A stretch of 35,929 nt of DNA. It comes from Deltaproteobacteria bacterium (GTDB lineage: Bacteria > Desulfobacterota > Desulfobulbia > Desulfobulbales > SURF-16). Location of the stretch: contig JAOZOY010000021.1 of assembly GCA_029933005.1 (NCBI GenBank), forward strand, positions 1 through 35,929, given 5' to 3'. The notes beneath the pieces are model-generated. The model made no database searches and was not told the DNA's origin. It worked only from the letters and a program-made list of their open reading frames with translations. Below are positions 1-31,517 of the stretch, in pieces; the first letter of the stretch is position 1, and each line of letters begins with the position of its first letter. Both the position numbers and the translations under genes were made by a program.

Positions 1-373
1 GGCAGAAGGGGAGAAAATGTTTTTTCCGACAAGCAATACGTGTATTGGCGGGCAAGACCTGAAATATAAGCTTTCTGGCGCTATGTTTTCTGCTAAAGAC
101 CATCAAAAATAGAATTTTTAGAAGAGGAATAATGTCTGTCTGGCTGGTTAACCCCTTGGCTTTGTAGCTGATGGTAACTTTTTTGATGGCACTCGGGCAC
201 TACGTTTGTTATTCTTTGCTTTCATGGAAAAGGTGACTCCTCAATCTGTTTTCCTGGTAGGTAACAGATTGAGGACATTACATTTCTCATGTTTTCTTGA
301 CATCTGTTTGCAAAAAAATGGATATTATTAATTTGAGAGACAAACTTACAGAGTGAATGGCTGAAAAATCAAA

Positions 374-563
374 GTAACTATTCAGCACCCCATCTTATCC
401 CATATCGGAGTCTCGCATACTCGCTTACCTGGCCTTCTTGAATAGCACAAGTATGCGTTTCGAAGTCCCAAATGAAAGGTAAGCGTAGACTCCGATATAG
501 AGTGCTCCTGAACAGTTACGGAACGGTGGTTATGCCAATTTGGTGGCCCACCTGAATAGTTAC
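374..563. mobile_element. MITE-like element A (190 bp), IS66-type ends, non-coding
   Basis: Left end GTAACTATTCAG (374-385), right end CTGAATAGTTAC (552-563), a perfect 12-bp inverted repeat; flanked by exact 8-bp direct repeat AAATCAAA at 366-373 and 564-571. Second right-end-like copy CCTGAACAGTTAC ends at 519; internal dyad ATATCGGAGTCT...AGACTCCGATAT. Confidence 0.85.
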
Positions 564-592
564 AAATCAAAAAAATAGAGGAGTCGAAAAAT

Positions 593-2512
593 ATGGGAAT
601 GACAGTTGCTGAAAAAATTCTGGCTGCACATCTTGTTGAGGGAGAAATGGTCAAGGGTGAGGAGATCGCTATTCGCATCGACAGAACTTTGACCCAGGAT
701 GCCACGGGAACCATGGCCTATCTTGAGTTTGAGGCAATCGGAATTCCGAGAGTGAAAACGGAATCATCGGTCTGCTATGTGGATCATAATCTGATTCAGG
801 CTGATTTTAAAAACGCTGATGATCATCTTTTTCTGAGATCCATTGCCCGGAAATACGGCCTCTTTTTTTCACCGCCCGGAAACGGCATTTCCCACCAGAT
901 CAATCTTGAGCGTTTCGGTCTGCCCGGCAAAACCCTGCTCGGTTCGGATAGCCATACCCCCACCGGCGGGGGTATGGGGATGCTGGCCATTGGTGCCGGG
1001 GGCCTGGACGTGGCCATGTCCATGGCCGGAAAACCCTTTTACCTGGTTATGCCGAAAATTTTCGGTATTAAACTCACCGGAACATTGCAGCCCTGGGTCT
1101 CGGCCCGGGATGTTCTGCTTGAACTGCTCCGCCAACTTTCAGTGAAAGGCGGCGTCGGTTATATCATGGAATATTTTGGTCCGGGAGTAAAGGAGTTGTC
1201 CGTCACCGATCGGGCCTCTATCACCAACTTCGGCGCGGAACTTGGCGCCACCACCTCTGTTTTTCCCTCGGATGAAAATACAAAACAGTTTCTCGAGAGC
1301 CAGGGAAGAGCCGATGGCTGGGTTGAACTGGTAGCAGACGATGATGCCCGGTATGACGAGGTGATTGAAATTGATATGTCCACACTTGAGCCCATGATCG
1401 CCTGTCCGTCATCACCGGATAATGTGGTCAAGGTCAGTGAGGTGGCCGGCAAGCCGGTGGCCCAGGTTCTGGTAGGATCGTGTTCCAACTCTTCTCTGCG
1501 TGATTTGATGGTGGTTGCCAAAACTTTGGAAGACAGGAAGGTCAGCCCGGAGGTGAGTTTCGAGATCAATCCTGGCAGCCGCCAGGTCCTTGAGAATCTA
1601 GCCGCCGGGGGCGACATGTTGACCTTAATCCATGCCGGCGCCCGGATTCACCAGGCCGGATGCCTGGGATGTATCGGCATGGGCCAGGCTCCGCCCACTA
1701 ATACTATTTCTCTGCGCACCTTTCCGCGCAATTTCCCCGCACGCAGCGGCACCAAGAACGACCAGGTCTATCTCTGCAGTCCGGAGGTGGCGGTTGCCGC
1801 GGCTGTCACGGGCAAAATCACCGATCCTCGTGATCTGGGGGATTATCCGTCTTTTACCTTGCCGGAAAAATATCTGCCCGGCGATTCCCGCATTGAGCCC
1901 CCCCTTGCCGATGGTTCCGATGTTGAGATTATTCGTGGGCCGAATATCGCACCTTTTCCGAAGTTTGCTCCGCCGCCCGAGACCTGGGAGGGCAGTGTGC
2001 TTTTGAAAACCGGTGATAATATTACCACGGACCATATCATGCCGGCCGGTGCTCAAATTCTTCCCCTGCGCAGCAATATCCCGGCAATCAGCGAGTTTGT
2101 TTTTTCTCAGATTGATACGGATTTTGTTCGGCGCGCCAAGGAGACCGAGGCCGGTATGGTTGTCGGCGGTGTCAATTACGGCCAGGGGTCTTCCCGGGAA
2201 CACGCTGCCTTGGCCCCCCGTTATCTGGGAGTTCAGATTAAACTGGTTAAGAGTTTCGCCCGGATTCACAAGGCAAATTTGATTAATTTCGGCATATTGC
2301 CTTTGACCTTTGTTGATGAGGCGGATTACGATCTTGTTGAGCAGGGAGCAAAGGTGGTCATCCCCGAGCTGCGCAAAGAATTGGCTGGAGGCAGTGAGAT
2401 AATCAATGTGGAAATTAATGGTAACACGATCGCTGCCCGGCTTGATGTTTCAGATCGGCATCGGCAGATTCTTCTGGCCGGGGGGCTGCTGAACTGGGCT
2501 AAAAACTTGTAG
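593..2512 (+). CDS. acnA: Aconitate hydratase
   Basis: 639-aa ORF; aconitase motifs (LLGSDSHTPTGGGMGMLAIGAGG, VLVGSCSNSS, GCLGCIGMGQAPP, YGQGSSREHAALAPRYLG); RBS-like gaggag at 578-583. Confidence 0.95.
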   Translation: MGMTVAEKILAAHLVEGEMVKGEEIAIRIDRTLTQDATGTMAYLEFEAIGIPRVKTESSVCYVDHNLIQADFKNADDHLFLRSIARKYGLFFSPPGNGISHQINLERFGLPGKTLLGSDSHTPTGGGMGMLAIGAGGLDVAMSMAGKPFYLVMPKIFGIKLTGTLQPWVSARDVLLELLRQLSVKGGVGYIMEYFGPGVKELSVTDRASITNFGAELGATTSVFPSDENTKQFLESQGRADGWVELVADDDARYDEVIEIDMSTLEPMIACPSSPDNVVKVSEVAGKPVAQVLVGSCSNSSLRDLMVVAKTLEDRKVSPEVSFEINPGSRQVLENLAAGGDMLTLIHAGARIHQAGCLGCIGMGQAPPTNTISLRTFPRNFPARSGTKNDQVYLCSPEVAVAAAVTGKITDPRDLGDYPSFTLPEKYLPGDSRIEPPLADGSDVEIIRGPNIAPFPKFAPPPETWEGSVLLKTGDNITTDHIMPAGAQILPLRSNIPAISEFVFSQIDTDFVRRAKETEAGMVVGGVNYGQGSSREHAALAPRYLGVQIKLVKSFARIHKANLINFGILPLTFVDEADYDLVEQGAKVVIPELRKELAGGSEIINVEINGNTIAARLDVSDRHRQILLAGGLLNWAKNL

Positions 2513-2527
2513 GTTTGATGTGGTTGG

Positions 2528-2700
2528 GTATAAAAAATTGTACTCTAATAAAGACAAGGTTGGTTCCCTCTCCATTGTTTCCTGGAGAAAGAGAGTGTTT
2601 TTTTATGGTATAAAAAGTTGTACTAACGCTTAACTATTTGATTTTCTATGAATAAATGTATCAGTTTGGGCTTATGAACTGATGGTATAAAAAATTGTAT
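2528..2700. repeat. Three copies of near-palindromic 16-mer GTATAAAAARTTGTAY
   Basis: GTATAAAAAATTGTAC 2528-2543, GTATAAAAAGTTGTAC 2608-2623, GTATAAAAAATTGTAT 2685-2700; start-to-start spacing 80 and 77 bp. Confidence 0.8.
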
Positions 2701-2786
2701 TTTTTCTAGCAGTATGGAAATATTGAAGGTGGGTCGCAAATGCCTAAATAGCAGGAGATAAGAAGAAAATATTTTTTTTTGTTGAA

Positions 2787-2802
2787 TGGCACGGTGATTG
2801 CT
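2787..2802 (+). promoter_or_regulatory. Sigma-54 (RpoN) -24/-12 promoter
   Basis: TGGCACGGTGATTGCT matches consensus TGGCACG-N4-TTGCW at every defined position; predicted +1 near 2813. Confidence 0.75.
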
Positions 2803-2812
2803 ATAACTAGAA

Positions 2813-2890
2813 AACAAGAAATAATTCTTATCTCCTTTCTCCTTTGATTGGCCGTTTCTGTTCCCCCAGAAACGGCCTTTCTTTTTTTCC
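2813..2890 (+). ncRNA. Candidate sigma-54-dependent small RNA (~78 nt)
   Basis: Predicted start from the sigma-54 promoter, end at a strong intrinsic terminator, no credible ORF; 5' stem AAGAA-ATAA-TTCTT, then pyrimidine-rich TCTCCTTTCTCCTTT, then terminator hairpin. Confidence 0.55.
2850..2890 (+). terminator. Rho-independent terminator
   Basis: GGCCGTTTCTG (2850-2860), loop TTCCCC, CAGAAACGGCC (2867-2877): perfect 11-bp stem followed by tttctttttttcc. Confidence 0.9.
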
Positions 2891-2990
2891 GGCAGAATGA
2901 TCATGCTCGTTTTTTCCACTCCTAATCATTGATGGTCTCGTAAAAATTTCATTTTGCCCCTTTTCAGGAAGCCATCATACTTTTATTTAC

Positions 2991-3938
2991 GTGATTTTCG
3001 TGAGAATTCTAGATCAACGGGTTGGTATTTTATGCTGCAGGAACTATGATCGGCAAGAGATCAAGGCCTGTTTTGATCGTTTTGCCGCTTCCCTTGATTT
3101 TATCGTTCCGACCGGTTGTCGGATCTTGTTGAAGCCAAACCTGGTTTCAGGCCAGGGGCATGACGGTCTGGGCTGCACCCATCCTGAATTTGTCGCCGCC
3201 GTGGCCGAATGGTGTGTTGATCAGGGCGCCAGGGTGGCAGTTGGCGACTCTCCGGCCTTTGGCAGCGGCCAAAGGGTAATGCAGATCTGCGGCATAAGAT
3301 CGGCCTTGCGTGGTCTGCCCGTGAAAACAATTCATTTTTCCAGGGGGAAATCAAAATGTCTGGATTGCGGCATTAAAGTGGGAATCGCTCCGGAAGCTCT
3401 TGACTGCGATTTCCTGATCAATATGCCCAAGGTTAAAGCCCATGCTCAGGTTCGGGTGACTCTGGCCGTGAAAAATTATTTTGGCATTGTCAGCGGTTGG
3501 AAAAAGGCCTGGCTTCATATGCGTTGCGGTGAAAGAGAAAATCTTTTTGAATCTCTTCTTGTTGATCTCCTGAAAGTTGTGCCTGCCGGTTTCAGTTTTA
3601 TTGACGGGATTGTTGCCATGCATAAAACAGGTCCCATTACCGGCGATCCTTTTCCCCTTGGCCTGGTGGCGGGGTCACTAAATCCGGTGGCCCTTGATGC
3701 GGCGCTTCTGGATATTCTGGGAGTTGCTGCCGGACAAAGCATGGTGCAGATGGAATGTGTCCGGCGGGATATGCCCGGCAGCCGTTCCAGGAATTTATCA
3801 TACCCATTTCTCTGTCCAAAAGAGATGGCTGTGTCTGATTTTTTTGTGCCGCAGGTGTTGGACAGGGTGCGTTTTCAGCCAGGCCAGATGTTGAAGAGCT
3901 GTTTGAAAAAAGCATACTCAAGAATTATTCCCGGTTGA
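2991..3938 (+). CDS. DUF362 domain-containing protein
   Basis: 315-aa ORF; LLKPNLVSGQGHDGLGCTHPEFVAAVAEW, INMPKVKAHAQVRVTLAVKNYFGIV typical of DUF362; exact start uncertain. Confidence 0.85.
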   Translation: MIFVRILDQRVGILCCRNYDRQEIKACFDRFAASLDFIVPTGCRILLKPNLVSGQGHDGLGCTHPEFVAAVAEWCVDQGARVAVGDSPAFGSGQRVMQICGIRSALRGLPVKTIHFSRGKSKCLDCGIKVGIAPEALDCDFLINMPKVKAHAQVRVTLAVKNYFGIVSGWKKAWLHMRCGERENLFESLLVDLLKVVPAGFSFIDGIVAMHKTGPITGDPFPLGLVAGSLNPVALDAALLDILGVAAGQSMVQMECVRRDMPGSRSRNLSYPFLCPKEMAVSDFFVPQVLDRVRFQPGQMLKSCLKKAYSRIIPG

Positions 3939-4087
3939 GACTTTACAAAGTTGTAGATAAAAATTATTCTTTGCAATCTCAATGTCATTGATTTAGGGCT
4001 GTTACGAAATAAGCCTTGTAAGGCACTAAATTTTTACTTATTTTCGAGAGGTTCGTGTTTTTCGTGGCAAAATTAAGGAGTAAAAAA

Positions 4088-4840
4088 ATGTTTCATCTTG
4101 AGGGAAAAACTGCGCTCATAACCGGCAGCTCCAGGGGTATCGGTAAGGCGATTGCTCTTCGTTTTGCCGAAAATGGCGTGAATGTCGTGGTTAACTATGT
4201 CCGTAAACGTAGCGATGCCGAAAAGACAGCTGCATTAATTGAATCAAAGGGGGCAAAATGCCTGGTGGTCAAGGCTAACGTGGCAAAGGATGAAGATGTG
4301 ATCGCCATGTTTGATGTGATCAGGGGGGAATATGGCCGGCTTGATTTTCTGGTGAGTAATGCTGCCTCCGGTGTTTTAAAGCCCGTGCTTGAGTTGAGCA
4401 GCCGTCATTGGAACTGGGCCATGGATATTAATGCCAGGGCTCTGTTGACTCTGGCTCAGCAGGCTGTGCCTCTCATGAAGGATGGCGGTAAGATTATTGC
4501 CGTCTCAAGTTTGGGTTCGGTGCGGGCCATTGAGAATTATACGGCGGTTGGAGCCTCAAAGGCGGCCCTGGAGTCCCTTGTCCGTCATCTGGCGGTGGAG
4601 CTTGGTCCTGAAAAAATCAATGTCAATACGATCAGCGCCGGAGCCGTGGACACCGAGGCCCTGAAAAAATTTCCCAACCGGCGGGAAATTCTCGATACAG
4701 CCAGGGAACGAACTCCCCTGGGTCGACTGACCACCCCGGAAGATGTGGCGGATATCGCCCTTTTTCTCTGCAGTGATCTTGCCGCTATGATCCAGGGCCA
4801 GACCATCGTAGTTGACGGCGGTTATTCCATCAGGGCCTGA
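4088..4840 (+). CDS. fabL: SDR-family oxidoreductase, FabL-type enoyl-ACP reductase-like
   Basis: TGSSRGIGKAIALRF Rossmann motif, SNAASG, C-terminal IVVDGGYSI; overall FabL-like; RBS aaggag before ATG 4088. Confidence 0.75.
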   Translation: MFHLEGKTALITGSSRGIGKAIALRFAENGVNVVVNYVRKRSDAEKTAALIESKGAKCLVVKANVAKDEDVIAMFDVIRGEYGRLDFLVSNAASGVLKPVLELSSRHWNWAMDINARALLTLAQQAVPLMKDGGKIIAVSSLGSVRAIENYTAVGASKAALESLVRHLAVELGPEKINVNTISAGAVDTEALKKFPNRREILDTARERTPLGRLTTPEDVADIALFLCSDLAAMIQGQTIVVDGGYSIRA

Positions 4841-4846
4841 TTATTG

Positions 4847-5467
4847 ATGGATCGGCAAAAACAACAGGGTGGTTTTGTCATCCGACAGAGGCTGATTCTT
4901 GCCTCGTCTTCGCCAAGGCGAGCCCGCTTTTTCAGGGATCTTGGCCTTGATTTTGAGGTCCGGTCCGCTGAAATAGATGAATCGCAGCGGGAAGGTGAGC
5001 TTCCTGCCGCCTTTGTTAAGCGGCTGGCCGGAGAAAAGGCGGCAATCATTTCCAAACGGAATCCTGCCGCCTGGGTGGTAGGTGCGGATACCTGTGTTTT
5101 CCTTGGCGGACAGATTCTGGGGAAACCGGATTCTCAGGCAGACGCCGGTCGTATGCTGCAGATATTGTCCGGCCATTGGCACGAGGTTTGGACGGGTTTT
5201 GCCATCTATCATTATAAGACAGGCATCAATGTTCGCCGGGCAGTGCTGACCCGAGTTCTTTTCCGGGAATTAACCCCTGATCTCATCCATTCTTATGTCC
5301 TCACCGGTGAACCCATGGATAAGGCCGGAAGTTACGGTATCCAGGGAAAGGGGGGATTTCTTGTCCGAAAAATTGAAGGGTCATGCAGCAATGTAATCGG
5401 CCTGCCCTTGAACGAAGTTGTTGAGGAGATGTTGAAGTTGCATGTAATCAGCCCCTGTCTGAACTGA
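4847..5467 (+). CDS. maf: Maf family nucleotide pyrophosphatase
   Basis: LILASSSPRRARFF, VVGADTCV, DKAGSYGIQGKGGFLVRKIEGSCSNVIGLPL are Maf signatures. Confidence 0.95.
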   Translation: MDRQKQQGGFVIRQRLILASSSPRRARFFRDLGLDFEVRSAEIDESQREGELPAAFVKRLAGEKAAIISKRNPAAWVVGADTCVFLGGQILGKPDSQADAGRMLQILSGHWHEVWTGFAIYHYKTGINVRRAVLTRVLFRELTPDLIHSYVLTGEPMDKAGSYGIQGKGGFLVRKIEGSCSNVIGLPLNEVVEEMLKLHVISPCLN

Positions 5468-5469
5468 AG

Positions 5470-5525
5470 GTAAACGTTTACAGGACAGAGGTTATCGTAA
5501 ATCTGCATTCCCGGTGAATGGTTAC
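5470..5525. mobile_element. MITE-like element B (56 bp)
   Basis: GTAAACGTTTACAGG left; rc of right end GTAACCATTCACCGG; exact 8-bp direct repeat AACTGAAG at 5462-5469 and 5526-5533; left copy overlaps the maf stop codon TGA. Confidence 0.75.
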
Positions 5526-5549
5526 AACTGAAGAGTGGCACCATTTGTT

Positions 5550-5579
5550 TTGACAGATGAATCTTGTTTGTTGTAGAAT
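5550..5579 (+). promoter_or_regulatory. Sigma-70 type promoter for the EAL/HDOD gene
   Basis: TTGACA (5550-5555), N18, TAGAAT (5574-5579); ATG at 5591. Confidence 0.55.
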
Positions 5580-5590
5580 TTTATTTAAAC

Positions 5591-6850
5591 ATGAAACATT
5601 CATCCCCTAAACAAGAACTGGCTGAAGACAGTGTCTTTGTCGCTCGGCAGCCCATTTTCCGCAAAACAAAAAAAGTCTTCGGCTATGAACTCCTGTTCCG
5701 TTCCGGTCAGGAAAATTTCGCCGATCCTTCTATAGATGGCGACGTAGCCACTTCCAATGTTGTCACTAACAGTTTTCTTGTTATCGGTCTCCACAAGCTC
5801 ACGGATGGTAAAAAGGCTTTTATCAATTTTACCGATGAGATGCTCTGTAATTCTTACCCTGCCCTGTTTCCCATACAGGCCATTGTCGTTGAAGTTCTTG
5901 AAGATGTTATTGTCACCCCTGAGTTGATTAAGGCCTGCCACTCTCTTGTCAGCCAGGGTTATGTTCTCGCCCTGGATGATTTTATCTATAAACCTGAGTT
6001 TGATCCTCTTCTTAAGCTGGCTGGAATCGTCAAATTTGATATCAGGGCCATGTCCATGGCGGAGCTTGCCCGGGATGTGGAACGAGTCGCTTCTTTTCGT
6101 GTCCGGCTGCTGGCTGAAAAGGTGGAGACGCAGGAAGAGTTCGAGGCCACGAAAGAGATGGGCTTTAACCTGTTCCAGGGCTATTTCTTCTGTAGGCCGG
6201 AGATTGTCGGCGGCCGTGATATTCCCGCTTCAAAAATACAGTATCTGCAGCTTTTAAGGATGGTTCAGGATGAAAATTATGATTTTAGAAAGATTTCCGA
6301 CCTGATTTCACATAATGTCGGCCTGTCATTCAAGTTGCTCAGATACGTCAACTCGGCATACATTGGTCTGCGTAATAAGGTGAAATCCCTGCAGACCGCC
6401 GTGGCCTTGATCGGCGAATTGAATATTCGTAAATGGCTCAGCCTGATCATGCTTTCCCGCATGGCTGAAGACAAACCTCTGGAGCTGGTAAAATTGTCCA
6501 TTGAAAGGGCAAGTTTCTGCGGCCGGATCGGCGATAGCCTGCCCGATAAAAGATTTGAAAGTTCTCTTTTTTTTACGGTGGGAATGTTTTCCCTGCTCGA
6601 TGTGATTCTGGGTCAGAAGATGGAAGTGATTTTAAAGGATCTGAATCTGGCTGATGAGATTCAGGATTGTCTCCTTGGCAGATCCAGGGATCAGCTGGCC
6701 AGGACACTTGCTCTGGTCAAGGCCTATGAACGCGGCAACTGGGAGAAGGCCGGCCAATTATCTTCCGCCCTTGGAATTTCCATGACGGATTTGCCCGGCC
6801 ATTTTGATGGTGTTTTGGAAGAAGTTCGGGCCTTTTGCCTGAGTGATTGA
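5591..6850 (+). CDS. EAL and HDOD domain signalling protein (YuxH-like)
   Basis: VARQPIFRKTKKVFGYELLFRSG N-terminal EAL-like region, LALDDF, LLAEKVE, LFQGYFF, then HDOD region (ISHNVGLSFKLLRYVNSAYIGLRNKVKSLQTAVALIGELNIRKWLSL). Confidence 0.9.
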   Translation: MKHSSPKQELAEDSVFVARQPIFRKTKKVFGYELLFRSGQENFADPSIDGDVATSNVVTNSFLVIGLHKLTDGKKAFINFTDEMLCNSYPALFPIQAIVVEVLEDVIVTPELIKACHSLVSQGYVLALDDFIYKPEFDPLLKLAGIVKFDIRAMSMAELARDVERVASFRVRLLAEKVETQEEFEATKEMGFNLFQGYFFCRPEIVGGRDIPASKIQYLQLLRMVQDENYDFRKISDLISHNVGLSFKLLRYVNSAYIGLRNKVKSLQTAVALIGELNIRKWLSLIMLSRMAEDKPLELVKLSIERASFCGRIGDSLPDKRFESSLFFTVGMFSLLDVILGQKMEVILKDLNLADEIQDCLLGRSRDQLARTLALVKAYERGNWEKAGQLSSALGISMTDLPGHFDGVLEEVRAFCLSD

Positions 6851-6868
6851 TTTTTGGATTTGGGAATG

Positions 6869-6910
6869 CGGATTTCGGAATGGACTGACAAAACCGCATT
6901 CCGAAATCCG
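6869..6910. repeat. Dispersed ATTTCGG/CCGAAAT inverted repeat
   Basis: CGGATTTCGGAATG (6869-6882) and perfect reverse complement CATTCCGAAATCCG (6897-6910); related sequence near 9011-9037, 9158-9186, 24553-24636 and 25322-25335. Confidence 0.8.
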
Positions 6911-6927
6911 AAATCCGAAATCAAACA

Positions 6928-9003
6928 TTATGATGATCGGCCCATTTGATACATCTTGGAAAAATCGCCGATGGTCAGAAAAAGTTCAGCAATTCCCGCC
7001 AGAAGTGACAGCCTGTTGTTTCTGATCTTTTCATCCTCCACCATCACCATGACATCATCAAAAAAGGCGTCCACCGGTTCTTTCATTCGCAGAATAACAG
7101 TTAATGCCTGTTCGTATTCTTTTTCCGCCACCAAGGGAAGGGCTTCGGAGCGGATTGCCTGCAGGGTGGCAAAGAGTTCCTTTTCTCCCGGTTCAGTGAG
7201 CAGTTTTTCCTGGACAGCGGTTCCCCGGTGGTCCTTAATGATGTTATTGACCCGTTTGAAAGCCGCAGCCAGCAGGGTAAAGGTCGGTTGGTCGCTGATG
7301 GCGACAAGGGCGTCAATCCGTTTGCGGCAGTCGACAATATCGTCAAATGAAACTGAGGTCACCGCCTCGACAGCTTCGGAAGGAAGGCCCCGTCCGATGA
7401 GATCATTGATATAACGGTTTTTGATAAATTCCATGCTGTCTGCCAGAACAGCCGGGTGATTCAGCTTGTCTCCATAAAGATCAATCGCTTTTTTAAGCGA
7501 GGCGGAGAGTGAAAGAGGTGCGGACAGGTTTTCAAGAATATGGAGAAGACCCAGGGCCAGGCGCCGCAGGCCGAATGGATCTGCTGTGCCGGTTGGGATC
7601 TTGCCGATACCAAAACAGCCGGCAATGCTGTCGAGGCGGTCGGCCAGACCGACAATGGCCCCATGAATTTCAGAGGGCAGGGGGCTGCCGGCCCGCACCG
7701 GCATATAATGTTCCATGATTCCCTTTGCCGCGGCAGGGGGTTCACCATCGTGAAGGGCGTAATGCATTCCCATGTTGCCCTGCAGAGCCGGGAACTCATT
7801 CACCATGTCGGTCACCAGGTCTGCCTTGGCCAGCCAGGCCGCCCTCTTGACATTTTCCGTTTCCGCCGGAGCCAGGGTTTGTGTCAGAAAGGTGGATAAT
7901 TCCAAGAGACGTTCCGTTTTTTCAAGCATGGTGCCCAGATGGGCCTGAAAGATGACTCCCGCCAGACTGTCAACGCGGTCGGAAAGCCGATGTTGCCGGT
8001 CTTTCTTGAAAAAAAACAGGGCGTCTTCAAGGCGGGCACGTAGAACACGCTGATGTCCCTGCCTGGTCAGTATGGAATTTTTGACCCGGGTGTTGTTCAC
8101 GGCAACAAAATTAGCCATAAGGTTGCCGTCGTTGTCGGCAACCGGAAAATATTTCTGGTGTACCCGCATGGAGGTAATGAGGACCTCCCGGGGTAACTGC
8201 AGAAATTTTTTGTCAAATTCCCCGCAGATGCCCAAGGGGAATTCAACCAGGTTTGTTACGGTATTAAGAAGTTCCTCATCCGGAATAATACGTCCTCCGG
8301 CTTCAGTGGCAGCCTTGTCAATTTCGCTCTGAATCGTCTGACGTCGCTGTGTCAGGTCCACCAAGACGCCGGCCTTGGCCAGATCCGCAAGGTAGCCGTT
8401 AAAGTTTTGGACTTTGAATTCTTCAGGCGCCATGAATCGATGTCCCCGGGTCTGGTTGGAGCTTGTGATGTCGTTAACCCGGAAAGGAACGATTTTGCTG
8501 CCGAACAGAGCCAGAAGCCACTGAATAGGACGCGCAAAGCTGGTGCGGTTTGCTCCCCAGCGCATGGATTTGGGAAAAGGAAGATCTGCAATTAGCTCGG
8601 GCAGAAAGTCTGAAAGGAGTTGCGCGGTCTCTTCACCTTTTTTTTCCTGGCGCAGCATCAGGTATTCACCCTTGGCAGTGGTCACAATCTTCATGTCGTC
8701 CACTGTGGCACCCCGGGAACGGGCAAAGCCCATCGCGGCCTTGGTGGGTTGGTTATCCTTGTTAAACGCTGCTTTTTTGGGAGGTCCGAGGATTTCCTCA
8801 AGGCGATCAGGCTGGCGATCGGCAAGATCATCAATACACAGAGTCAGTCGTCTCGGTGTGGCCGCTATCCGGATCCGCCCGAATGGCAGATCAAGCTCTT
8901 TAAGCTTGAGGGCCATAATTTTTTTCATATTGTCCAGCGCCGGCAAGATATAATCTGCCGGAATTTCTTCGGTTCCAATTTCAAGTAAGAATTCGTGCTG
9001 CAT
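6928..9003 (-). CDS. glyS: Glycine--tRNA ligase beta subunit
   Basis: 691-aa ORF starting MQHEFLLEIGTEEIPADYILPAL; RGHRFMAPEEF, LTRQGHQRVLRARLEDALFFFKKD, GLADRLDSIAGCFGIGKIPTGTADPFGLRR. Confidence 0.97.
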   Translation of the reverse strand: MQHEFLLEIGTEEIPADYILPALDNMKKIMALKLKELDLPFGRIRIAATPRRLTLCIDDLADRQPDRLEEILGPPKKAAFNKDNQPTKAAMGFARSRGATVDDMKIVTTAKGEYLMLRQEKKGEETAQLLSDFLPELIADLPFPKSMRWGANRTSFARPIQWLLALFGSKIVPFRVNDITSSNQTRGHRFMAPEEFKVQNFNGYLADLAKAGVLVDLTQRRQTIQSEIDKAATEAGGRIIPDEELLNTVTNLVEFPLGICGEFDKKFLQLPREVLITSMRVHQKYFPVADNDGNLMANFVAVNNTRVKNSILTRQGHQRVLRARLEDALFFFKKDRQHRLSDRVDSLAGVIFQAHLGTMLEKTERLLELSTFLTQTLAPAETENVKRAAWLAKADLVTDMVNEFPALQGNMGMHYALHDGEPPAAAKGIMEHYMPVRAGSPLPSEIHGAIVGLADRLDSIAGCFGIGKIPTGTADPFGLRRLALGLLHILENLSAPLSLSASLKKAIDLYGDKLNHPAVLADSMEFIKNRYINDLIGRGLPSEAVEAVTSVSFDDIVDCRKRIDALVAISDQPTFTLLAAAFKRVNNIIKDHRGTAVQEKLLTEPGEKELFATLQAIRSEALPLVAEKEYEQALTVILRMKEPVDAFFDDVMVMVEDEKIRNNRLSLLAGIAELFLTIGDFSKMYQMGRSS

Positions 9004-9069
9004 GATATTGTTTCCTGTTATTTCGGATTTGAGATATCGTATTTTGTCTATCGGAGTTTGTGTTTATTT

Positions 9070-9146
9070 GAAAGTCTCTCGCAGAGGGACTGAGTTCACA
9101 GAGTTTTTTCTCTGCGACTCTGTGACCCTGTGAGAGACTAACTTTC
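9070..9146. repeat. Dispersed CTCTGTG inverted repeat, copy 1
   Basis: gaaagtctctcgcagagggactgagttcacagag ... ctctgcgactctgtgaccctgtgagagactaactttc; same family as 16792-16853. Confidence 0.75.
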
Positions 9147-9179
9147 ATTTTTTATTAATCTAAAATCCGCATTCCGAAA

Positions 9180-20817: not shown

Positions 20818-20888
20818 GTTAACTGTTCAGGTAGGGCTATAACCTACCCTTAACTCCATAGTGTAACTGTCTATGATTTATTTTTGGG

Positions 20889-21044
20889 GTAAACATTCGG
20901 CTTGATAATAAATTATTACAAAAACCACCGAAATGTAAATTTTGGATAGTGGCCCATATTTGGACGATCAGGTCTGCGAGCTATATTGATTCATATGCGA
21001 GTAGGCCTGATCGTTCAAAGATGGGGTGCTAGCCGAATATTTAC
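20889..21044. mobile_element. MITE-like element C (156 bp)
   Basis: GTAAACATTCGGCT (20889-20902) vs AGCCGAATATTTAC (21031-21044), 13/14 inverted match; exact 8-bp direct repeat TTTTTGGG at 20881-20888 and 21045-21052; internal dyad TGGACGATCAGG/CCTGATCGTTCA. Confidence 0.9.
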
Positions 21045-21569
21045 TTTTTGGGAAAGGGTATAGTCGGCAAGAAAACTATTCCGCCAGTAGCTGTTATCCT
21101 GATTAAGGAAAAATTCTTTGAAAAGGAGAAGGCTTTCATCACGGAGAATATGTGGGACAATTGAAACTTTTATCTCCCGGTAGAGAGGTGTCAGGTGGGA
21201 CAGGGGCAGGGATGTGCCGCCGCCCATGGCGTCTTCGTAAGCGTAAACAATGGTGTGGATGTTGCTGAGGAGCAGAGCCCCGAAGCACATCAGGCAGGGT
21301 TCCATGGTGCAGTAAACCGTCACCCGGCTATGGTCAATTTCAAGTTGGCCGGCCACAAGATGACGCAGAGCCATGATTTCGGCATGATCAAGTTCATTGG
21401 CGGCTAGAGTGGTCCCAGCCCTGGTCAGGGTTCGGCTGTGTTCTCTTTTTCCACTGGCCACGATTTGATCATCGTAGACCATGACGCAGCCTACAGGGAA
21501 TTCATTGGCGGCAAGGGCTTTTTTTGCCTCTTCCAAGGCAATTTTCATGAAATATTCGTGAGTTGGCAT
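21015..21569 (-). CDS. Nucleoside/tRNA adenosine-type deaminase (zinc CMP/dCMP deaminase fold)
   Basis: MPTHEYFMKIALEEAKKALAANEFPVGCVMV, HAEIMALR, TMEPCLMCFGALLLSNI. Last 9 codons and stop lie in MITE C. Confidence 0.88.
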   Translation of the reverse strand: MPTHEYFMKIALEEAKKALAANEFPVGCVMVYDDQIVASGKREHSRTLTRAGTTLAANELDHAEIMALRHLVAGQLEIDHSRVTVYCTMEPCLMCFGALLLSNIHTIVYAYEDAMGGGTSLPLSHLTPLYREIKVSIVPHILRDESLLLFKEFFLNQDNSYWRNSFLADYTLSQKVNIRLAPHL

Positions 21570-21703: not shown

Positions 21704-21763
21704 TTTTGACAGGATGAACAAGATTTTTCATTTATCCTGATGATCCTGTTAATCCCGTCAAAA
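21704..21763. repeat. Dispersed GGATTAACAGGAT-type imperfect inverted repeat
   Basis: TTTTGACAGGATGAACAAGAT ... ATGATCCTGTTAATCCCGTCAAAA, imperfect arms. Confidence 0.7.
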
Positions 21764-21812
21764 TTGAAAATTTTCATGCTATAAATTTGACTGGCAAAAA
21801 ATCAAGATTGAT

Positions 21813-22184: not shown

Positions 22185-22199
22185 AAGGGAAATGGCACA

Positions 22200-24029: not shown

Positions 24030-24544
24030 AAGGACTTGTATTGCTTTTTACCGGAAACGGCAAGGGGAAGACCACCGCAGCCTTGGGACAGGCCCTGCGG
24101 GCGGCCGGCCAGGGCCTGAAAGTCTGTTTTATTCAATTTATCAAGGGCAGCTGGCAGACTGGAGAGGAGAAAGCATTGGCCCATTTCAAGGAATGGATTG
24201 ATTTTTTTGTCACGGGCAGCGGTTTTACCTGGCAGGCCGAAGATCGGGATAAGTTGATCAGGGAAACCCGAAAGGCTTTTCAATTTGCCGGGGATAAAAT
24301 TTCAAGCGGTGAGTACGACATGGTCATTCTTGATGAACTGACCTATCTTGTCAAGTACGGTATGGTCGAAGAGGGCGAGGTTGTTGAGATGATCCGCAAT
24401 CGTCCGGAAACGCAGCATCTGGTGATCACCGGCCGTGATGCTTCCGACGGCCTTGTCGCTATTGCCGACCTTGTTACCGAAATGCGCGAGATCAAGCATC
24501 CCTTCAGCCATGGGATTAAGGCCCGGAAGGGGATTGAGTTTTAA
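24026..24544 (+). CDS. cobO: Cob(I)yrinic acid a,c-diamide adenosyltransferase
   Basis: LLFTGNGKGKTTAALGQALRAAGQGLKVCFIQFIKG, VILDELTYLVKYGMV, ITGRDA; 4-bp overlap with preceding gene. Confidence 0.95.
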   Translation: MKGLVLLFTGNGKGKTTAALGQALRAAGQGLKVCFIQFIKGSWQTGEEKALAHFKEWIDFFVTGSGFTWQAEDRDKLIRETRKAFQFAGDKISSGEYDMVILDELTYLVKYGMVEEGEVVEMIRNRPETQHLVITGRDASDGLVAIADLVTEMREIKHPFSHGIKARKGIEF

Positions 24545-24636
24545 ACTAGATTAAAATTTCGGATTTTAGATCTTGGATTTCGGAAATAACTAACGGGCTA
24601 AAAACCGAAATCAGCATTCAAAAATCCGCAATTCTG

Positions 24637-25323
24637 CTAGGGCATGGCTGACGGGGTTTTAAAGTTCAGCTCGGTCAACGATGTCCCCTGGGAGAGGGCC
24701 TGGCCGAGCAGTTCGCCGAAGCGCTTGGCCTCGACCAGTTGATCAGTGCCATGGCCGTATTTGGAATATACTTTTTTCATCAATCTGGATTGTTCCGGAT
24801 TTTTGCCGGCAAGTTTCAGGAAAACGCCGATGGTTCGCCACGGTTCCTTGGTGGGGTGGGTAAAGACGATCAGGTTCGGAATGGTTGCCCCGCATTTTCG
24901 GAGTTTTTGTCGCAGGCCGTACCAGTGAGCACGCCAGTAACCCCGGCAGGAGATGAAGGGGATAACGGTACGACCCTTAAACAGCCGGCTTCCGTCCCGG
25001 TCAAAAAGAGAAAGAACCGGGCCGCTGGGATGATAGGACCAGGTGGGGCCTGCCAGAATAATCAGGTCATATTCCCGGTTGCATTTTTCAGACAGTTCGG
25101 CAATAGGAACTCGTTTCCTGAAAAAAGTGATCAGCATCATTTTCAGGGTGGTGGGGATGTCTCCGAAGGGAAAACGGATTGTTTTGTTGGGAGAAAGTTT
25201 TTCGATGCTCACCTTAACTTGTTGTCGTTCCAGTCCCTCGGTTAATTTCCTTAACAGGCTGCTGGTCTGGCCGCTGTATGAATAACAAAGGATTAAGATG
25301 TGTTTTGCTTTGGCGTTGTTCAT
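24637..25323 (-). CDS. Flavodoxin-like fold protein
   Basis: HILILCYSYSGQTSSLLRKLTEGL flavodoxin-like P-loop, YDLIILAGPTWSYHPSGPV. Confidence 0.65.
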   Translation of the reverse strand: MNNAKAKHILILCYSYSGQTSSLLRKLTEGLERQQVKVSIEKLSPNKTIRFPFGDIPTTLKMMLITFFRKRVPIAELSEKCNREYDLIILAGPTWSYHPSGPVLSLFDRDGSRLFKGRTVIPFISCRGYWRAHWYGLRQKLRKCGATIPNLIVFTHPTKEPWRTIGVFLKLAGKNPEQSRLMKKVYSKYGHGTDQLVEAKRFGELLGQALSQGTSLTELNFKTPSAMP

Positions 25324-25585
25324 TTCGGATTCGGTAAGAAAATAAGTATCTGTTAAGCGATGGGGGAAAGGATCTCTATACTTTACTGATGAATTGACAT
25401 GATAAATATTTTAAAAGCAGGGGGCTTATGGCTTGGCGTGGATTGAAACTGCAAGTCATGATTCATCAGATGATCAGGTTACTCAACTTACCGATTTAAT
25501 ACCAGAGTAAAAATGATCTTTTTCATGGCTTTTTGTCTTTCGATGATTCAAGTTGAGGGAAGACAGGAGCGAAGAGAAAGAGACA

Positions 25586-26962
25586 ATGATGAAAACAATT
25601 TACGATGTAATAATTATCGGCAGCGGCATTTCCGGTCTGGCCACGGTCCATTTTTTGCGGAAAATACGTCCTGATCTACGCGTTTTGCTTCTTGAAAAGT
25701 CGGAGCGGGCCGGCGGAGCTGTTCAATCTTTTTTCGAGGATGGATTTCTGGCTGAGTGTGGGCCGCACGGTTTTCTGGACAATGTCGAAGAAAGCCGGGA
25801 AATTCTATGCGATACCGGTCTTGACAAAGAAGCCCAGACTGTGCCTCTTGGGGATTTTCGTCGCTTTGTCTGTCATCGGGGAAAATTGGTCGCCCTGCCC
25901 CAGAAACCCCGGAGTATGCTGACGACGTCGCTGCTTTCAGTAAAAGCAAAGCTGCGGCTGCTCGGTGATCTCTGGATAAAGCCTCGTCAGGAAGATCAGA
26001 CCATTGCTGAATGGGCCGAGTATCGCTTTGGCAAGGGTGTGCTTCCCCTGGTGGATGTGGCGGTGATAGGCACTTTTTCCGGAGATTACCAGCGTCTCAG
26101 TATTGATGCGGTCATGCCGGGCGTGCGGCGGCTGGAAAAGGAATATGGCTCTATTTTTCGAGGACTGAAAGCAAAAAAAAAGAAGAGTAAAAAATCCGGT
26201 CCCCTGCCGACCATGAAAAATTTTCCTCAGGGGCTTGAACGGCTGGTTGAGGTTCTGGCCCGGAACAGGGAGATTGTCTTTGACAGTTCGGTCCGCCGGC
26301 TGAACCGGCAGGATAACGGGTACTATCATATAGACACGGCAAAGAAAAGATTTTCGGCTCACAATGTGGTCATGGCCCTGCCCGTCAATCCGGCTCTTTC
26401 TCTGTTGTCCAAGCTTAGTACTCCTCCTGTGGCCGCTATTCCCGTGTCACGTATTTTTAATGTTGCTTTGGGGTTCACCGACCGGGCTCAAATTCCTTAC
26501 GGGTTCGGTTACCTGGCTCCGGAAACGGAAAACCGTTTTGCCCTGGGCGCTCTTTTTTCATCCCAGATGTTTCCCGGCCGGGCTCCGACCGGGCATGTGT
26601 TGCTTGAAGCCCTTGTCGGCGGTCGCCGACATCCGGAAAAATTGAAACTGGCTGATGAAGAAATTATTAAGAGGGTTCTTGATGATATTAAACAACTGAT
26701 TAATTTGCCCGAGCCGCCGGTATTTGCCAGGGTGTTGAAGCCGGCCGGAGGTATTCCGCAGCTGGAGTTGGATCATCCCCGCCTCCTTGAATGGCGCAGG
26801 ACGTTGGAAGACAAAGAAAAGGGATTGTATATTTGTGGCTTTGGCTGGGACGGCATCGGAATCAATGATATGACCAAGTCGGCAAGGAGGGTTGCCGAGG
26901 CGATTGTGGCAGGTGGACGTGGTAAAGCAGAGAAGGATGCGGTGAAAGGGGTCTATTTTTGA
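25586..26962 (+). CDS. hemG: Protoporphyrinogen oxidase (HemY-type, FAD)
   Basis: YDVIIIGSGISGLATVHFLRK, LLEKSERAGGAVQSF, LAECGPHGFLDN, C-terminal GLYICGFGWDGIGINDMTKSARRVAEAI. Confidence 0.9.
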   Translation: MMKTIYDVIIIGSGISGLATVHFLRKIRPDLRVLLLEKSERAGGAVQSFFEDGFLAECGPHGFLDNVEESREILCDTGLDKEAQTVPLGDFRRFVCHRGKLVALPQKPRSMLTTSLLSVKAKLRLLGDLWIKPRQEDQTIAEWAEYRFGKGVLPLVDVAVIGTFSGDYQRLSIDAVMPGVRRLEKEYGSIFRGLKAKKKKSKKSGPLPTMKNFPQGLERLVEVLARNREIVFDSSVRRLNRQDNGYYHIDTAKKRFSAHNVVMALPVNPALSLLSKLSTPPVAAIPVSRIFNVALGFTDRAQIPYGFGYLAPETENRFALGALFSSQMFPGRAPTGHVLLEALVGGRRHPEKLKLADEEIIKRVLDDIKQLINLPEPPVFARVLKPAGGIPQLELDHPRLLEWRRTLEDKEKGLYICGFGWDGIGINDMTKSARRVAEAIVAGGRGKAEKDAVKGVYF

Positions 26963-27022
26963 ACGATTTCGTTCAACTTTACATTTTCCAATGGCGGGAA
27001 GGGCCTGGAACTAGATGGGCTG

Positions 27023-27601
27023 CTACTGAATAGTTACGGATTTTCTTCTTTCCTCAAGTTGAATATCAAGAAGCTTCAACTGTTCAATCATGTCCTGCAG
27101 ATTTTGATTTTCTGCTGTCAGCTGCTCTTTTTCCCCTTTTAATGCTGAGGTGTCGCTTTTTAGTCTTATGCTATGTTTTTTTAAGGCATTATTTTTGGCT
27201 TTCAGAGCATGATTTTTGGACCTCAATGTATCAATCTCCCGGAATAACGACAGGAGGTACTGCACGTCACTTTTTTTCTCTGCCTCGGGATTGAGCCGGA
27301 TATAGCTTTCAAGATTCTGTAGAGCCTTTTTGTAATCGGGTTGGGATTTTTTGTGGTGTGAGTAGAGGAGGGAAAGATAATAAAATGACTCTGCGGCCGC
27401 AGCTGAATCCGGATCATCAGCGCTGTTTTTTTCAAGGCGGGCGATTTCCGGTTCAATATTGTTGCTTTCAACGGACAGGTAATAGTGGGGATAGGTGTTG
27501 AACAGGGACTTGTCAATACAGCCGCTTGTAAGTAACCCGATACAGGCCAACAGGAGAATGAATGGTCGAAAATTCGGTTTTAGCGGCCTGAAATGTCTCA
27601 T
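27023..27601 (-). CDS. Lipoprotein with C-terminal coiled coil
   Basis: ILLLACIGLLTSGCIDK lipobox; TPR-like FYYLSLLYSHHKKSQPDYKKALQNLESYIRLNPEAE; heptad-rich C-terminus. Confidence 0.65.
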   Translation of the reverse strand: MRHFRPLKPNFRPFILLLACIGLLTSGCIDKSLFNTYPHYYLSVESNNIEPEIARLEKNSADDPDSAAAAESFYYLSLLYSHHKKSQPDYKKALQNLESYIRLNPEAEKKSDVQYLLSLFREIDTLRSKNHALKAKNNALKKHSIRLKSDTSALKGEKEQLTAENQNLQDMIEQLKLLDIQLEERRKSVTIQ

Positions 27602-28980
27602 TTTCCTCCCAGGCCGACAACCTTGGGCCGAAAGCCGGGCTGTTGTTTTTTTTGACCTCTGCGGTTGACAACGAACACGCTGCCCGGGATCGACTTGGCG
27701 TGTTTTTTTAATTCTGCGGCAATCTCTCCGATTATTAAATGATTTGTCGGTCTTTGATGGTCAACGTTGACCACTGCGATTGAAATAGTCATGATAGGAA
27801 ATCTTACCTCCAGTCCCTGTCGCGTGTTGCCGACAATGTAGCCTTTTTTTCTGTCTATGACAGGATAATAATCGGGAACAATTCGATCAAATTTCTTGAT
27901 AATAGTCTCGCATATTATCCTGTGGTGACGCCGATTGACGATCGCGACAAAATCATCTCCGCCAATGTGGCCGACAAAGTTGTCATCAGAGTTATACCTG
28001 GAAACGGTGGATTTAATTAATTCCGCTGTCGCCTTGATGATTTCATTGCCCTGGGCGTATCCGTAGCGGTCATTAAATGACTTGAAATTATCCAGGTCCA
28101 GCATGCAGAATGAAATGTTTTTATTCGTAGCCAGCCGGTTTTTAAGAACATTTTCAATGGCTGTTCCTCCAGGCAGTCTGGTTAAGGGATTTGCGTCCCG
28201 ATGGATCACTTCCAGAAACGCCAATCGTTGAGCCATGTCACCAAAAGAGCTGGCGAGTTCCCTGAATTCGTCTTTGGTGTCAACGTCTGGGTAATGGTCA
28301 AAATGTCCTTCCGATATCAGCTTGGCGGAAGATTTCAACTGTTGGATTGACCGGGAAATACTGCGGCTGATCAATGATATTGCAACAAATCCCAAGATGA
28401 ATCCCAAAATGGCCAACAGTCCCGTGATCTGGAATGCTTTCATGCCGATGGAGCCGGCACTGATTATTTTCTGGTGCTGGTTTTTTCTGCCGATTTTTTC
28501 AATATGCTGGATAAGCACAAAAATTTCGTCCAGCGTCTCCTGTATTTGCTTGTCGTATCTTGGGACAGAATCTGCTGTTGAGTTGTTTAATGATTCAAAA
28601 TTTTTGGTATACAGTTCATTTAATTTATGATGGAGTGATGCCAGCTGTTCGATGGGAATATTTTGATGGTTTTCCAGGACCCGGATTTGGTCTACAAGCG
28701 AATTAAAGGCATGGCTGCGTTGCTGGAATAACTTAAGTATCTGCGGACTCCCCAGAATCATATAACGCCGACCATACGCTTCCTGGGCCAGAAGATTATC
28801 CACTAATTTATCTGTCGCCAGGAAGAGAACAGTATCGTTTTCCACGATATCTTTATTGATTATTTCAAACTGTTTGATGTTTTGCAGAGAAAAAACGGCA
28901 ATTGCGATGATCGCCAGCAGAATAGGCATGTAGCCAAGAATCATTTTCCCCTTAATATTGAATTTTTGTAAAGTGTTCAT
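27598..28980 (-). CDS. Membrane HAMP-GGDEF diguanylate cyclase
   Basis: Two TM segments, HAMP (SRSISRSIQQLKSSAKLISEGHFDHYP), GGDEF domain with signature HIGGDDFVAIV. Confidence 0.85.
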   Translation of the reverse strand: MNTLQKFNIKGKMILGYMPILLAIIAIAVFSLQNIKQFEIINKDIVENDTVLFLATDKLVDNLLAQEAYGRRYMILGSPQILKLFQQRSHAFNSLVDQIRVLENHQNIPIEQLASLHHKLNELYTKNFESLNNSTADSVPRYDKQIQETLDEIFVLIQHIEKIGRKNQHQKIISAGSIGMKAFQITGLLAILGFILGFVAISLISRSISRSIQQLKSSAKLISEGHFDHYPDVDTKDEFRELASSFGDMAQRLAFLEVIHRDANPLTRLPGGTAIENVLKNRLATNKNISFCMLDLDNFKSFNDRYGYAQGNEIIKATAELIKSTVSRYNSDDNFVGHIGGDDFVAIVNRRHHRIICETIIKKFDRIVPDYYPVIDRKKGYIVGNTRQGLEVRFPIMTISIAVVNVDHQRPTNHLIIGEIAAELKKHAKSIPGSVFVVNRRGQKKQQPGFRPKVVGLGGK

Positions 28981-29482
28981 TGGCTGGCATGTCTGATTAT
29001 TTTTTTGAACAGCGGAATAAGTTGCTGTCTAAGCTACCGTGTCTGACGGAAAGGTTACCGGTTCAGAATTGTTTATGTTGATACGCAAGAAAGATGCCAA
29101 TGTCTCCAGTATTCCCTCATCTGTGCTGGGTTACTGGTTGTTATGGTAACAGGCAAGACCTTTTCACAAGCCTCGACCGTCGCATTTGTTTCTATTAAAA
29201 TTATGACAGATTTTGATGAATTGTGAAAAGAAAAAAGGATAAATCTACTGTAGAAATAGATTAATTCTTTTTAACTGGACACTGTGGGGAAAATAGAAAA
29301 GAAAAGGCGTGGAGGATGTTTTTGTGAAAAAAATTTAAATGAAGATTTTGCAGGTCTGAGTCTTTGTTCTGCTTTGTCTGCCTGCACACATATGGAGCGT
29401 CCCGCATAAGGGAAGCACCTTCAAAGACAGGTGCTAGATGGTTAACCCAATTATTTTTTTTGGCTGAGTGGTTACCGAAGTG

Positions 29483-30814
29483 CTACAAAAACTGTTTTTC
29501 AAGCTTGGTGGAAACAAGTTTGATCTGGCCTCGCACGCTGCTGGATCGTACGATTTGATCTGTGATGACCCGAACAGAATGAACCACGGTTGAGTGATCC
29601 CTGTTAAAGGCTCTGCCAATATCGGCCAGAGGCTGATTCGTGTATTTACGGGCCAGGTACATTGAAATCTGCCGGGGAAAGGTAATGGCTTTTTTTCTGG
29701 ATTTGGAGCAGAGATCGTTAATGGTAACCTTGAACTGGCCGGCGATAAAATTACGGATGACTTCGGCGGTCAGGTCATTATGGCGACCAATAATATTTCT
29801 CAGGGTTTCCTTGACCAAAGTTAGATCAGGGCGGGTTTTGAGCAGGCCGCATTGAGCCTTGATGCCGACAATAATACTTTTGATTTGGCGAATATCGCCC
29901 TTGATCTGTTCGGCCAGGAACAGGATCTGTTCTTCGTTGAGGGGAAGTCGGCAGTTATCGGCTTTTCTTTTGATAATTCGAATACGGGTATTTTGGTCCG
30001 GAGGGTTGATGGTGGTGATCAGTCCGGAGGTCAATCTGGAGCGGAAAGCAGAGTCAATATCAGGAATATCCAACGGAGTCATGGAGCTGGTCATGATAAT
30101 TCGTTTCCCTCGATCCATAAGATAATCCAGAGTTTCCGCCAGTTCACTCTGGGTCTTGGGTTTGCCGCCCAAGGTGTGAATATCTTCAATCAGCAGAATA
30201 TCGCAGTAATTTTGATATTTCTTTTTAAAGCCGTTCATGCTGTTATTTTGAATTGCTTTAACCATTTCACCTGTGAGTTGCTGGGCAGTGAGATAGTGCA
30301 GTCGCGTTCCCGGCGAGTGATTCAGGATATGGTGGGCCACGGCATGGGTCAAGTGGCTTTTTCCCAGGCCAGTATCGGCCTTGATATAAAGACAAGGTCC
30401 GAGAGCCGTATCATTCATGGCCATTGCCTCGCTGGCACCGTGGGCAACCATGTTGCTTTCTCCAACTATGAATTCAGCAAAGGTGTGGCGGGGATGCAGG
30501 GCTCGGATGCATGATTGAACCTTGGGCATGGTTGGCAGGCGCAGTTGCTCGCTTCCGCCAGTGAGCAGTGGCCTTCGGCTCGAGCCATCAACAGTGAATC
30601 GTATATTGAGATTCTTTCGGTCAAGTTCTTCTAGACAGCTCTTGATCTCTGTCAGGTAATTGTTTTTAATCCAATTACAGAAAAAAGTATCCGGTCCGGC
30701 CAGTTCCAACCCTTGACTGTCTTCCTTAAGGCAGCAGATTGGCTCAATCCAGAGCGAATAAACGCTGTTTGACAGTTTTTTAGACAATTTATTTTTTATA
30801 CTATTCCACAACAT
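29483..30814 (-). CDS. dnaA: DnaA-like replication initiator, divergent
   Basis: AAA+ core (ADTGLGKSHLTHAV, DILLIEDIHTLGGK, SRLTSGL, INPPDQNTRIRIIKRKA), domain IV FPRQISMYLARKYTNQPLADIGRAFNRDHSTVVHSVR. Confidence 0.85.
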   Translation of the reverse strand: MLWNSIKNKLSKKLSNSVYSLWIEPICCLKEDSQGLELAGPDTFFCNWIKNNYLTEIKSCLEELDRKNLNIRFTVDGSSRRPLLTGGSEQLRLPTMPKVQSCIRALHPRHTFAEFIVGESNMVAHGASEAMAMNDTALGPCLYIKADTGLGKSHLTHAVAHHILNHSPGTRLHYLTAQQLTGEMVKAIQNNSMNGFKKKYQNYCDILLIEDIHTLGGKPKTQSELAETLDYLMDRGKRIIMTSSMTPLDIPDIDSAFRSRLTSGLITTINPPDQNTRIRIIKRKADNCRLPLNEEQILFLAEQIKGDIRQIKSIIVGIKAQCGLLKTRPDLTLVKETLRNIIGRHNDLTAEVIRNFIAGQFKVTINDLCSKSRKKAITFPRQISMYLARKYTNQPLADIGRAFNRDHSTVVHSVRVITDQIVRSSSVRGQIKLVSTKLEKQFL

Positions 30815-31294
30815 TGTTTGTAGGTCTAAAAGAAAGATATTGAAAAAAGTAACCGGAGTCAGTTTGAATGTTGGCTAGTTTTATTCAAAAAACAGGGTGG
30901 CTGTCAAAGACGGTTAAGGCGGATTTCTAATCATGATTTCTAGAGTTATCAACACCCTGGAAAAGCCTGTATGGCATGGATGTTACCGGCAGCGTCTTTT
31001 AATTTGTTAAAAAAGCGTGCTTTTTTTGTGCCAACGAAAAGGCCTGTGATTCTATAGTTTTATGACTGTTCTGTTATGGTTTTTAATACTTAATTAAATC
31101 ATTAAGCTCCTCTTTCCTCGTTTTCTTTGCTGATTTCTCCTTTTTTCTCTTTTTTTTATATATCAGATGCTACAGACTCGTGTTTTTTGATTTTTTCTTA
31201 CTGCCACTTGGAATCAGGGCTGAAAAAAATTTAGGCACCAGGAGGAGACTTTCTTGACTTCAAACATCGTTCACTCTAAATTAATAAAAAAATG

Positions 31295-31492
31295 GTAAGC
31301 GATCACAGGCACCGAAGGTAAGTGAACGAAGTGAAACTCCATTACCGCGATCAGGACGTCTGACATAGAGGGGCTATAGTCACCCACCCTGCTTACGGTA
31401 GGTAGCGCAGACTCCGATCTCCGGCACCTGTAAACGCTTATAGAATAAGGAGTTACCTGAAAGCTTGGTGATTTTACCCCGTGATTGGTTAC
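31295..31492. mobile_element. MITE-like element D (198 bp)
   Basis: Left GTAAGCGATCACAGG; rc of right end GTAACCAATCACGGGG; exact 8-bp direct repeat AAAAAATG at 31287-31294 and 31493-31500; shares AGACTCCGAT module with element A. Confidence 0.8.
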
Positions 31493-31517
31493 AAAAAATG
31501 TTACCAACGGTGAAAAT

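What the first reader, a model, noticed from the sequence alone, without database searches (positions are those of the whole stretch)
366..31500. A family of short IS66-like MITEs whose insertions all sit exactly at gene boundaries
Seen directly: four elements (374-563, 5470-5525, 20889-21044, 31295-31492; 190, 56, 156 and 198 bp) begin GTAA and end TTAC, have related inverted ends, and each is bounded by a different exact 8-bp direct repeat (AAATCAAA, AACTGAAG, TTTTTGGG, AAAAAATG). Four different perfect 8-bp duplications is strong evidence of transposition. GTAA termini plus 8-bp duplications are established features of IS66-family elements; no transposase is in the window, so they would be non-autonomous. 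Positional pattern: B and C are inserted at stop codons (maf, deaminase); A and D are inserted 21 and 17 bp upstream of start codons (acn, nikR), just 5' of the RBS region. This suggests either selection for minimally disruptive sites or targeting of gene edges. Element size varies widely while ends are conserved.
Basis: partly seen in the sequence, partly recalled or inferred. Interest (0 to 1): 0.88.

Follow-up and report, generated by a model that had tools for sequence, protein, structure and literature searches.

The report
Modular IS66-type miniature transposons (MITEs)
The four repeats are real, very small "passenger" transposons with perfect 8-bp target duplications, part of a family with an estimated 150 or so copies in this uncultured Desulfobulbales-type bacterium that was most likely moved by IS66-type transposases; they sit near gene ends mainly because they avoid coding DNA, not because they aim at gene edges.

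Summary
Observation confirmed. All four elements have GTAA...TTAC ends and exact 8-bp duplications. In 942 kb of the same genome, 42 GTAA...TTAC segments have exact 8-bp duplications, against a mean of 0.34 for the other 255 tetramers. A same-genus genome holds a letter-perfect empty site for C and an unoccupied site for B; D's site there carries a different element.

The IS66 assignment holds. All four end types occur at ends of IS66 elements in other genomes of the order, several with perfect 8-bp duplications. Many carry a DruA/DUF4338 gene beside tnpC. This genome keeps only transposase/DruA fragments.

The elements share one backbone: a 100-150 bp palindrome, an inner end, and a 44-45 bp tail with the outer end. 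The 56-bp type (B) is inner end plus tail only. The palindrome shows strong two-sided change across subfamilies, without the G-U excess expected of RNA.

"All exactly at gene boundaries" is mostly the geometry of short intergenic regions. Of 166 placed insertions, almost none lies deep in a gene, but there is no general gene-edge enrichment (55 observed, 55.7 expected). There is a modest excess at stop codons (32 vs 21) and depletion at starts (12 vs 20).

The parts
366..373 (.). 8-bp target duplication AAATCAAA (left copy) of element A; right copy 564-571
374..563 (+). Element A: palindromic module 374-519 (inner end CTGAACAGTTAC) plus 44-bp tail 520-563; end type GTAACTATTCAG
   Evidence: end type matches IS66 elements L150, L253-L259
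5470..5525 (+). Element B, 56 bp: 12-bp palindromic inner end GTAAACGTTTAC (5470-5481) plus 44-bp tail (5482-5525); duplication AACTGAAG at 5462-5469 and 5526-5533, containing the maf stop TGA
   Evidence: site unoccupied in same-genus genome G001
20889..21044 (-). Element C: tail 20889-20934, palindromic module 20935-21044; end type GTAAATATTCGGC; duplication TTTTTGGG at 20881-20888 and 21045-21052; supplies about 9 new C-terminal codons and the stop of the minus-strand deaminase gene
   Evidence: perfect single-copy empty site in G001; end of IS66+DruA elements
31295..31492 (+). Element D: palindromic module 31295-31441 (inner end decayed, TTAT) plus 51-bp tail 31442-31492; end types GTAAGCGATCACAGG / GTAACCAATCACGGGG; duplication AAAAAATG at 31287-31294 and 31493-31500
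20821..20877 (.). Decayed remnant of an older A-type tail beside C, shared with the same-genus genome
   Evidence: seen in the alignment; resembles the left end of L064:3426-3594
404..429 (.). Nested mini-module CGGAGTCT..CGCTTACC in the left arm of A; inverted partner GGTAAGCGTAGACTCC at 478-493
31317..31340 (+). Nested mini-module GGTAAGTGAACGAAGTGAAACTCC in an arm of D

Best explanation
These are miniature, transposase-less transposons (MITEs) moved in trans by IS66-family transposases, mainly the single-ORF (ISBst12-like) and the tnpC+DruA (DUF4338) kinds found in the same order. The transposase recognises the roughly 12-16 bp ends that begin GTAA, and insertion duplicates 8 bp. Full copies have three usable ends: outer left, an inner end 44-45 bp from the right terminus, and outer right. 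The transposase or deletion can give left-right (about 150-224 bp) or, where the inner end is a palindrome, inner-right (56 bp) elements. One backbone carries several end types, so it has adapted to several IS66 subfamilies. Insertions in non-coding DNA and at the extreme 3' ends of genes survive; others are lost. Shown: duplications, empty or unoccupied sites, end identity with IS66 elements elsewhere, shared architecture, covarying palindrome. Inferred: trans-mobilisation, use of the inner end by transposase, and selection as cause of the location pattern.
For: 42 exact-duplication elements in 942 kb vs 0.34 for other tetramers; 81 in 1.54 Mb. Exact empty site for C and an unoccupied site for B; D's site lacks D in the same-genus genome. 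IS66 elements with matching ends: A type L150 (2414 bp, duplication ATTTTATT) and 1.6-1.7 kb single-ORF copies with perfect 8-bp duplications; B type L265, both ends GTAACCGTTCACCGGG; C type L394, L405, L408; D type L448, 28 bp after a tnpC stop. Own-genome remnant of DruA with a B-type end. Inner end at 44/45 bp. Published ISBst12-group element ISDge4 has TIRs GTGACTACTCAGCA / GTAACTGCTCAGCA and an 8-bp repeat (PMC12898284).
Against: No intact partner transposase is found in the genome as assembled, so mobilisation in trans is inferred. Multi-copy ISs often drop out of metagenome bins, so absence is weak. The IS66 elements share mainly the ends with the MITEs; the palindrome is not clearly derived from any of them. 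L265 ends have no matching duplication, and the C- and D-type partners are seen at one end only.
Confidence: 0.88

Rival explanations
1. The elements actively target gene edges, especially stop codons, through a target-site or protein preference of the transposase.
For: In the same-intergenic null, insertions within 10 bp of a stop codon are 32 vs 21 expected (P about 0.0015, uncorrected; own genome 17 vs 11.3, other genomes 15 vs 9.6). Density peak of 9.4 per 10 kb in the last 10 bp of genes in the own genome.
Against: No enrichment near edges in general (55 vs 55.7), start codons are depleted (12 vs 20), the target site is only AT-rich. Purging of insertions upstream of genes and tolerance at 3' ends explains most of the pattern. 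Several statistics were looked at, with a home-made gene caller.
Confidence: 0.12
2. The palindromes are functional RNA elements (terminators or mRNA stabilisers) kept at gene ends by selection.
For: Strong covariation of the palindrome (19 of 28 pairs change on both sides) and folding z about -6.
Against: G-U pairs are not in excess of A-C (16 vs 38 among non-Watson-Crick cells), as expected for DNA rather than RNA pairing; no orientation bias relative to genes (25 of 46); no Rfam match in the window.
Confidence: 0.08
3. Non-IS66 origin: an unrelated transposase family with coincidentally similar GTAA ends.
For: No intact IS66 partner in the own genome.
Against: All four end types, 12-16 bp long, are found at the ends of IS66 elements in the order.
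Confidence: 0.04

Closest known systems
ISBst12 group of the IS66 family (e.g. ISDge4, PMC12898284)
   Same: GTAAC-type short ends (GTAACTGCTCAGCA vs GTAACTATTCAGC here), 8-bp target duplication, single transposase gene in the partner
   Different: The elements here are 42-224 bp, have no gene, and carry an inner end and a covarying palindrome
Bacterial MITEs with an identified partner IS, e.g. MITEAba12/ISAba12 (PMC6382973), MITEPsy1 (PMC3189936)
   Same: Non-autonomous, partner-like ends, target duplications, mostly AT-rich or intergenic sites
   Different: Different transposase families; one conserved size and end type each, whereas this backbone carries at least four end types and three usable ends
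REP/BIME repeats (PMC2817692)
   Same: High copy number, palindromic, extragenic, mosaic
   Different: The elements here have 8-bp target duplications and IS66 ends (REPs being linked to REP-associated tyrosine transposases)

Membership tests
IS66-family MITE | Termini begin GTAA, related inverted ends | tested here: met
IS66-family MITE | 8-bp target duplication, single copy in the empty site | tested here: met
   (exact for C; B site unoccupied; D site carries another element; A not testable in G001)
IS66-family MITE | Ends match an autonomous IS66 element | tested here: met
   A, B, C, D types in other genomes of the order: (both ends seen for A and B, one end for C and D)
IS66-family MITE | No transposase of its own | tested here: met
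   No TSD-bounded element exceeds 225 bp in 942 kb; the neighbouring genes tested are not transposases
IS66-family MITE | Partner transposase in the same genome | tested here: inconclusive
   Only IS66 and DruA fragments in a 164-contig, 96.5% complete bin
IS66-family MITE | Transposes when the partner enzyme is supplied | not testable with these tools
   needs a trap assay
REP/BIME element | 20-40 bp palindrome without target duplication, Y1 transposase partner | tested here: not met
   8-bp duplications in 42 of the segments found, and IS66-type ends
Structured RNA element | Known family, or pairing with G-U tolerance typical of RNA | tested here: not met
   no Rfam match; G-U not above A-C

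The most novel reading that the evidence does not exclude
A single DNA-palindrome backbone whose three ends change in concert to fit different IS66 transposases, with its arms kept complementary at DNA level: a modular non-autonomous transposon that switches its host transposase, down to a 56-bp mobile unit, partnered with DruA-carrying IS66 elements.
Probability: 0.3. Interest if true: 0.65.

Novelty: new variant of a known kind. Interest (0 to 1): 0.5.

Why it matters
IS66 transposition is poorly characterised. This family gives several end types and a minimal 56-bp substrate, so end recognition becomes directly testable. It links DruA (known from Druantia defence) repeatedly to IS66 transposons, and offers a clear case of a palindrome maintained at DNA level across genera. 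No paper on IS66-derived MITEs turned up in the open-access library, though most subscription papers are not held.

Tried and rejected
General gene-edge targeting: no enrichment against the within-intergenic null. Orientation bias relative to genes: none. RNA-level selection: G-U not in excess. A long autonomous copy in the own genome: none in 942 kb with a duplication, IS66 fragments only. Canonical IS66 (C134) as partner: its end GTAAGCGCTTTATTA differs beyond GTAAGCG. Viral carriage of the hairpin core: 0 hits. oriC link for D (next to dnaA): no DnaA-box excess.

Full report
OBSERVATION. All four elements are present at the stated coordinates with GTAA..TTAC ends and exact 8-bp repeats. A blind scan of 942 kb of the same genome (a 3.07-Mb, 164-contig bin) for GTAA..TTAC segments of 25-3000 bp with exact 8-bp flanking repeats found 42, all shorter than 225 bp (one copy, D, is counted twice because two fetched stretches overlap). 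The other 255 tetramers gave a mean of 0.34 and at most 3; shuffled sequence gave none at <=400 bp. In 1.54 Mb there are 81 with 0-2 mismatches in the repeat. By similarity, A and D each have about 40 or more scored places in the genome.

EMPTY SITES. A same-genus genome (G001, about 90% identical) has a letter-perfect empty site for C, with a single TTTTTGGG. At B it has a single, diverged, unoccupied site, but carries an A-type element with its own 8-bp repeat AATTTCAT a few tens of bases downstream, where this genome has no insertion: a reciprocal difference. At D it lacks D and carries what looks like a truncated A-type tail. A could not be tested there because the G001 contig ends inside acn. 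The deaminase's original stop TAA directly follows the C duplication in the empty site; the insertion gave the gene about nine new codons read from the element.

PARTNER. IS66 elements in relatives have perfect 8-bp duplications. A-type ends: L150 (2414 bp; DruA/DUF4338 plus IS66 tnpC, duplication ATTTTATT) and single-ORF elements of 1.6-1.7 kb with GTAACTATTCAGC or GTAACTACTCAGC. B-type: L265, DruA plus tnpC, 16-bp identical ends GTAACCGTTCACCGGG, without matching duplication. C-type: GTAAATATTCGGCTTG or ..GGCC at the DruA-side end of L394, L405, L408. D-type: GTAACCAATCACGGGG 28 bp beyond a tnpC stop in L448. The protein assignments are by Pfam (DruA only weakly by PADLOC). The own genome holds only fragments, one of them a truncated DruA gene with a B-type end about 110 bp upstream. 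The published ISBst12-group ISDge4 has matching ends and an 8-bp repeat (PMC12898284).

ARCHITECTURE. Oriented copies have a left palindromic module, an inner end, and a 44-45 bp tail (51 bp in D). The 55-58 bp elements such as B are a 12-bp near-palindromic inner end plus the tail. Hairpin-only and other deletion forms also occur. Ends within one element resemble each other more than between elements (L-R 6.75 vs 5.51 of 8 variable positions), though relatedness of copies inflates this. Seventeen diverse copies, picked by hand from the non-redundant set plus one D-type copy, align almost without gaps across end types. The palindrome pairs in 93.7% of cells, with 80 two-sided changes vs 3-18 when slid. 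G-T is not above A-C (16 vs 38), which argues for DNA-level maintenance; the mechanism (arm correction or selection) is not settled.

LOCATION. Own genome: 57 of 81 insertions are intergenic although 82.8% is called coding; those in genes are almost all within 31 bp of the stop codon. An independent set from other genomes: 74 of 85 intergenic. Within intergenic regions plus 12 bp on each side, any-edge proximity (<=25 bp) is 55 vs 55.7 expected; stop codons within 10 bp 32 vs 21 (P about 0.0015, uncorrected, one of seven statistics); start codons 12 vs 20. No orientation preference. Target duplications are AT-rich only. So the four window cases are typical of short intergenic regions; a mild stop-codon bias remains possible. 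Gene models came from a simple codon-usage caller.

DISTRIBUTION. An exact 20-mer of the hairpin core occurs in at least 112 stretches of public genomes, nearly all Desulfobulbaceae, Desulfurivibrionaceae, Ca. Desulfobia and other Deltaproteobacteria bins, with a few in Calditrichaceae/Flavobacteriaceae bins that may be misbinned; none in viral contigs. The D-type end is in 18 of 194 genomes of the order, 13 genera.

VERDICT. A real, abundant, modular MITE family of IS66 type: a new variant of a known kind. The gene-boundary claim is largely a by-product of avoiding coding DNA.

Noticed in passing
window 404-429, 478-493, 31317-31340; also L078:18210, L228:4660, L218:11452: A smaller 16-24 bp repeat (GGTAAGCG..AGACTCC with a variable, often palindromic middle) is nested in the MITE arms; 85 hits in 1.54 Mb, 36 inside duplication-bounded elements and a few apparently free of any MITE.
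   Followed up: partly
L150, L137, L265, L394, L408: DruA/DUF4338, known from Druantia defence, repeatedly lies next to IS66 tnpC inside one transposon; no paper joining DruA or DUF4338 with IS66 was found in the library.
   Followed up: partly
window 29483-30814: dnaA lies next to the intergenic region holding element D; no excess of DnaA-box-like sites in the window.
   Followed up: partly
G000 C36:15250-15430 and elsewhere: Another repeat not of this family (containing CATCATTAAATCCATACAATACATTAA) recurs about 12 times in the sampled genome.
   Followed up: no
own genome, k-mers GTCGTAATCCCTTCGTAAATCAGGTC and ATGAGCCATGAGCC: A 22-copy 26-mer repeat (possibly a CRISPR or tandem array) and short ATGAGCC / ATCAGCC tandem runs appear among the top k-mers.
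   Followed up: no
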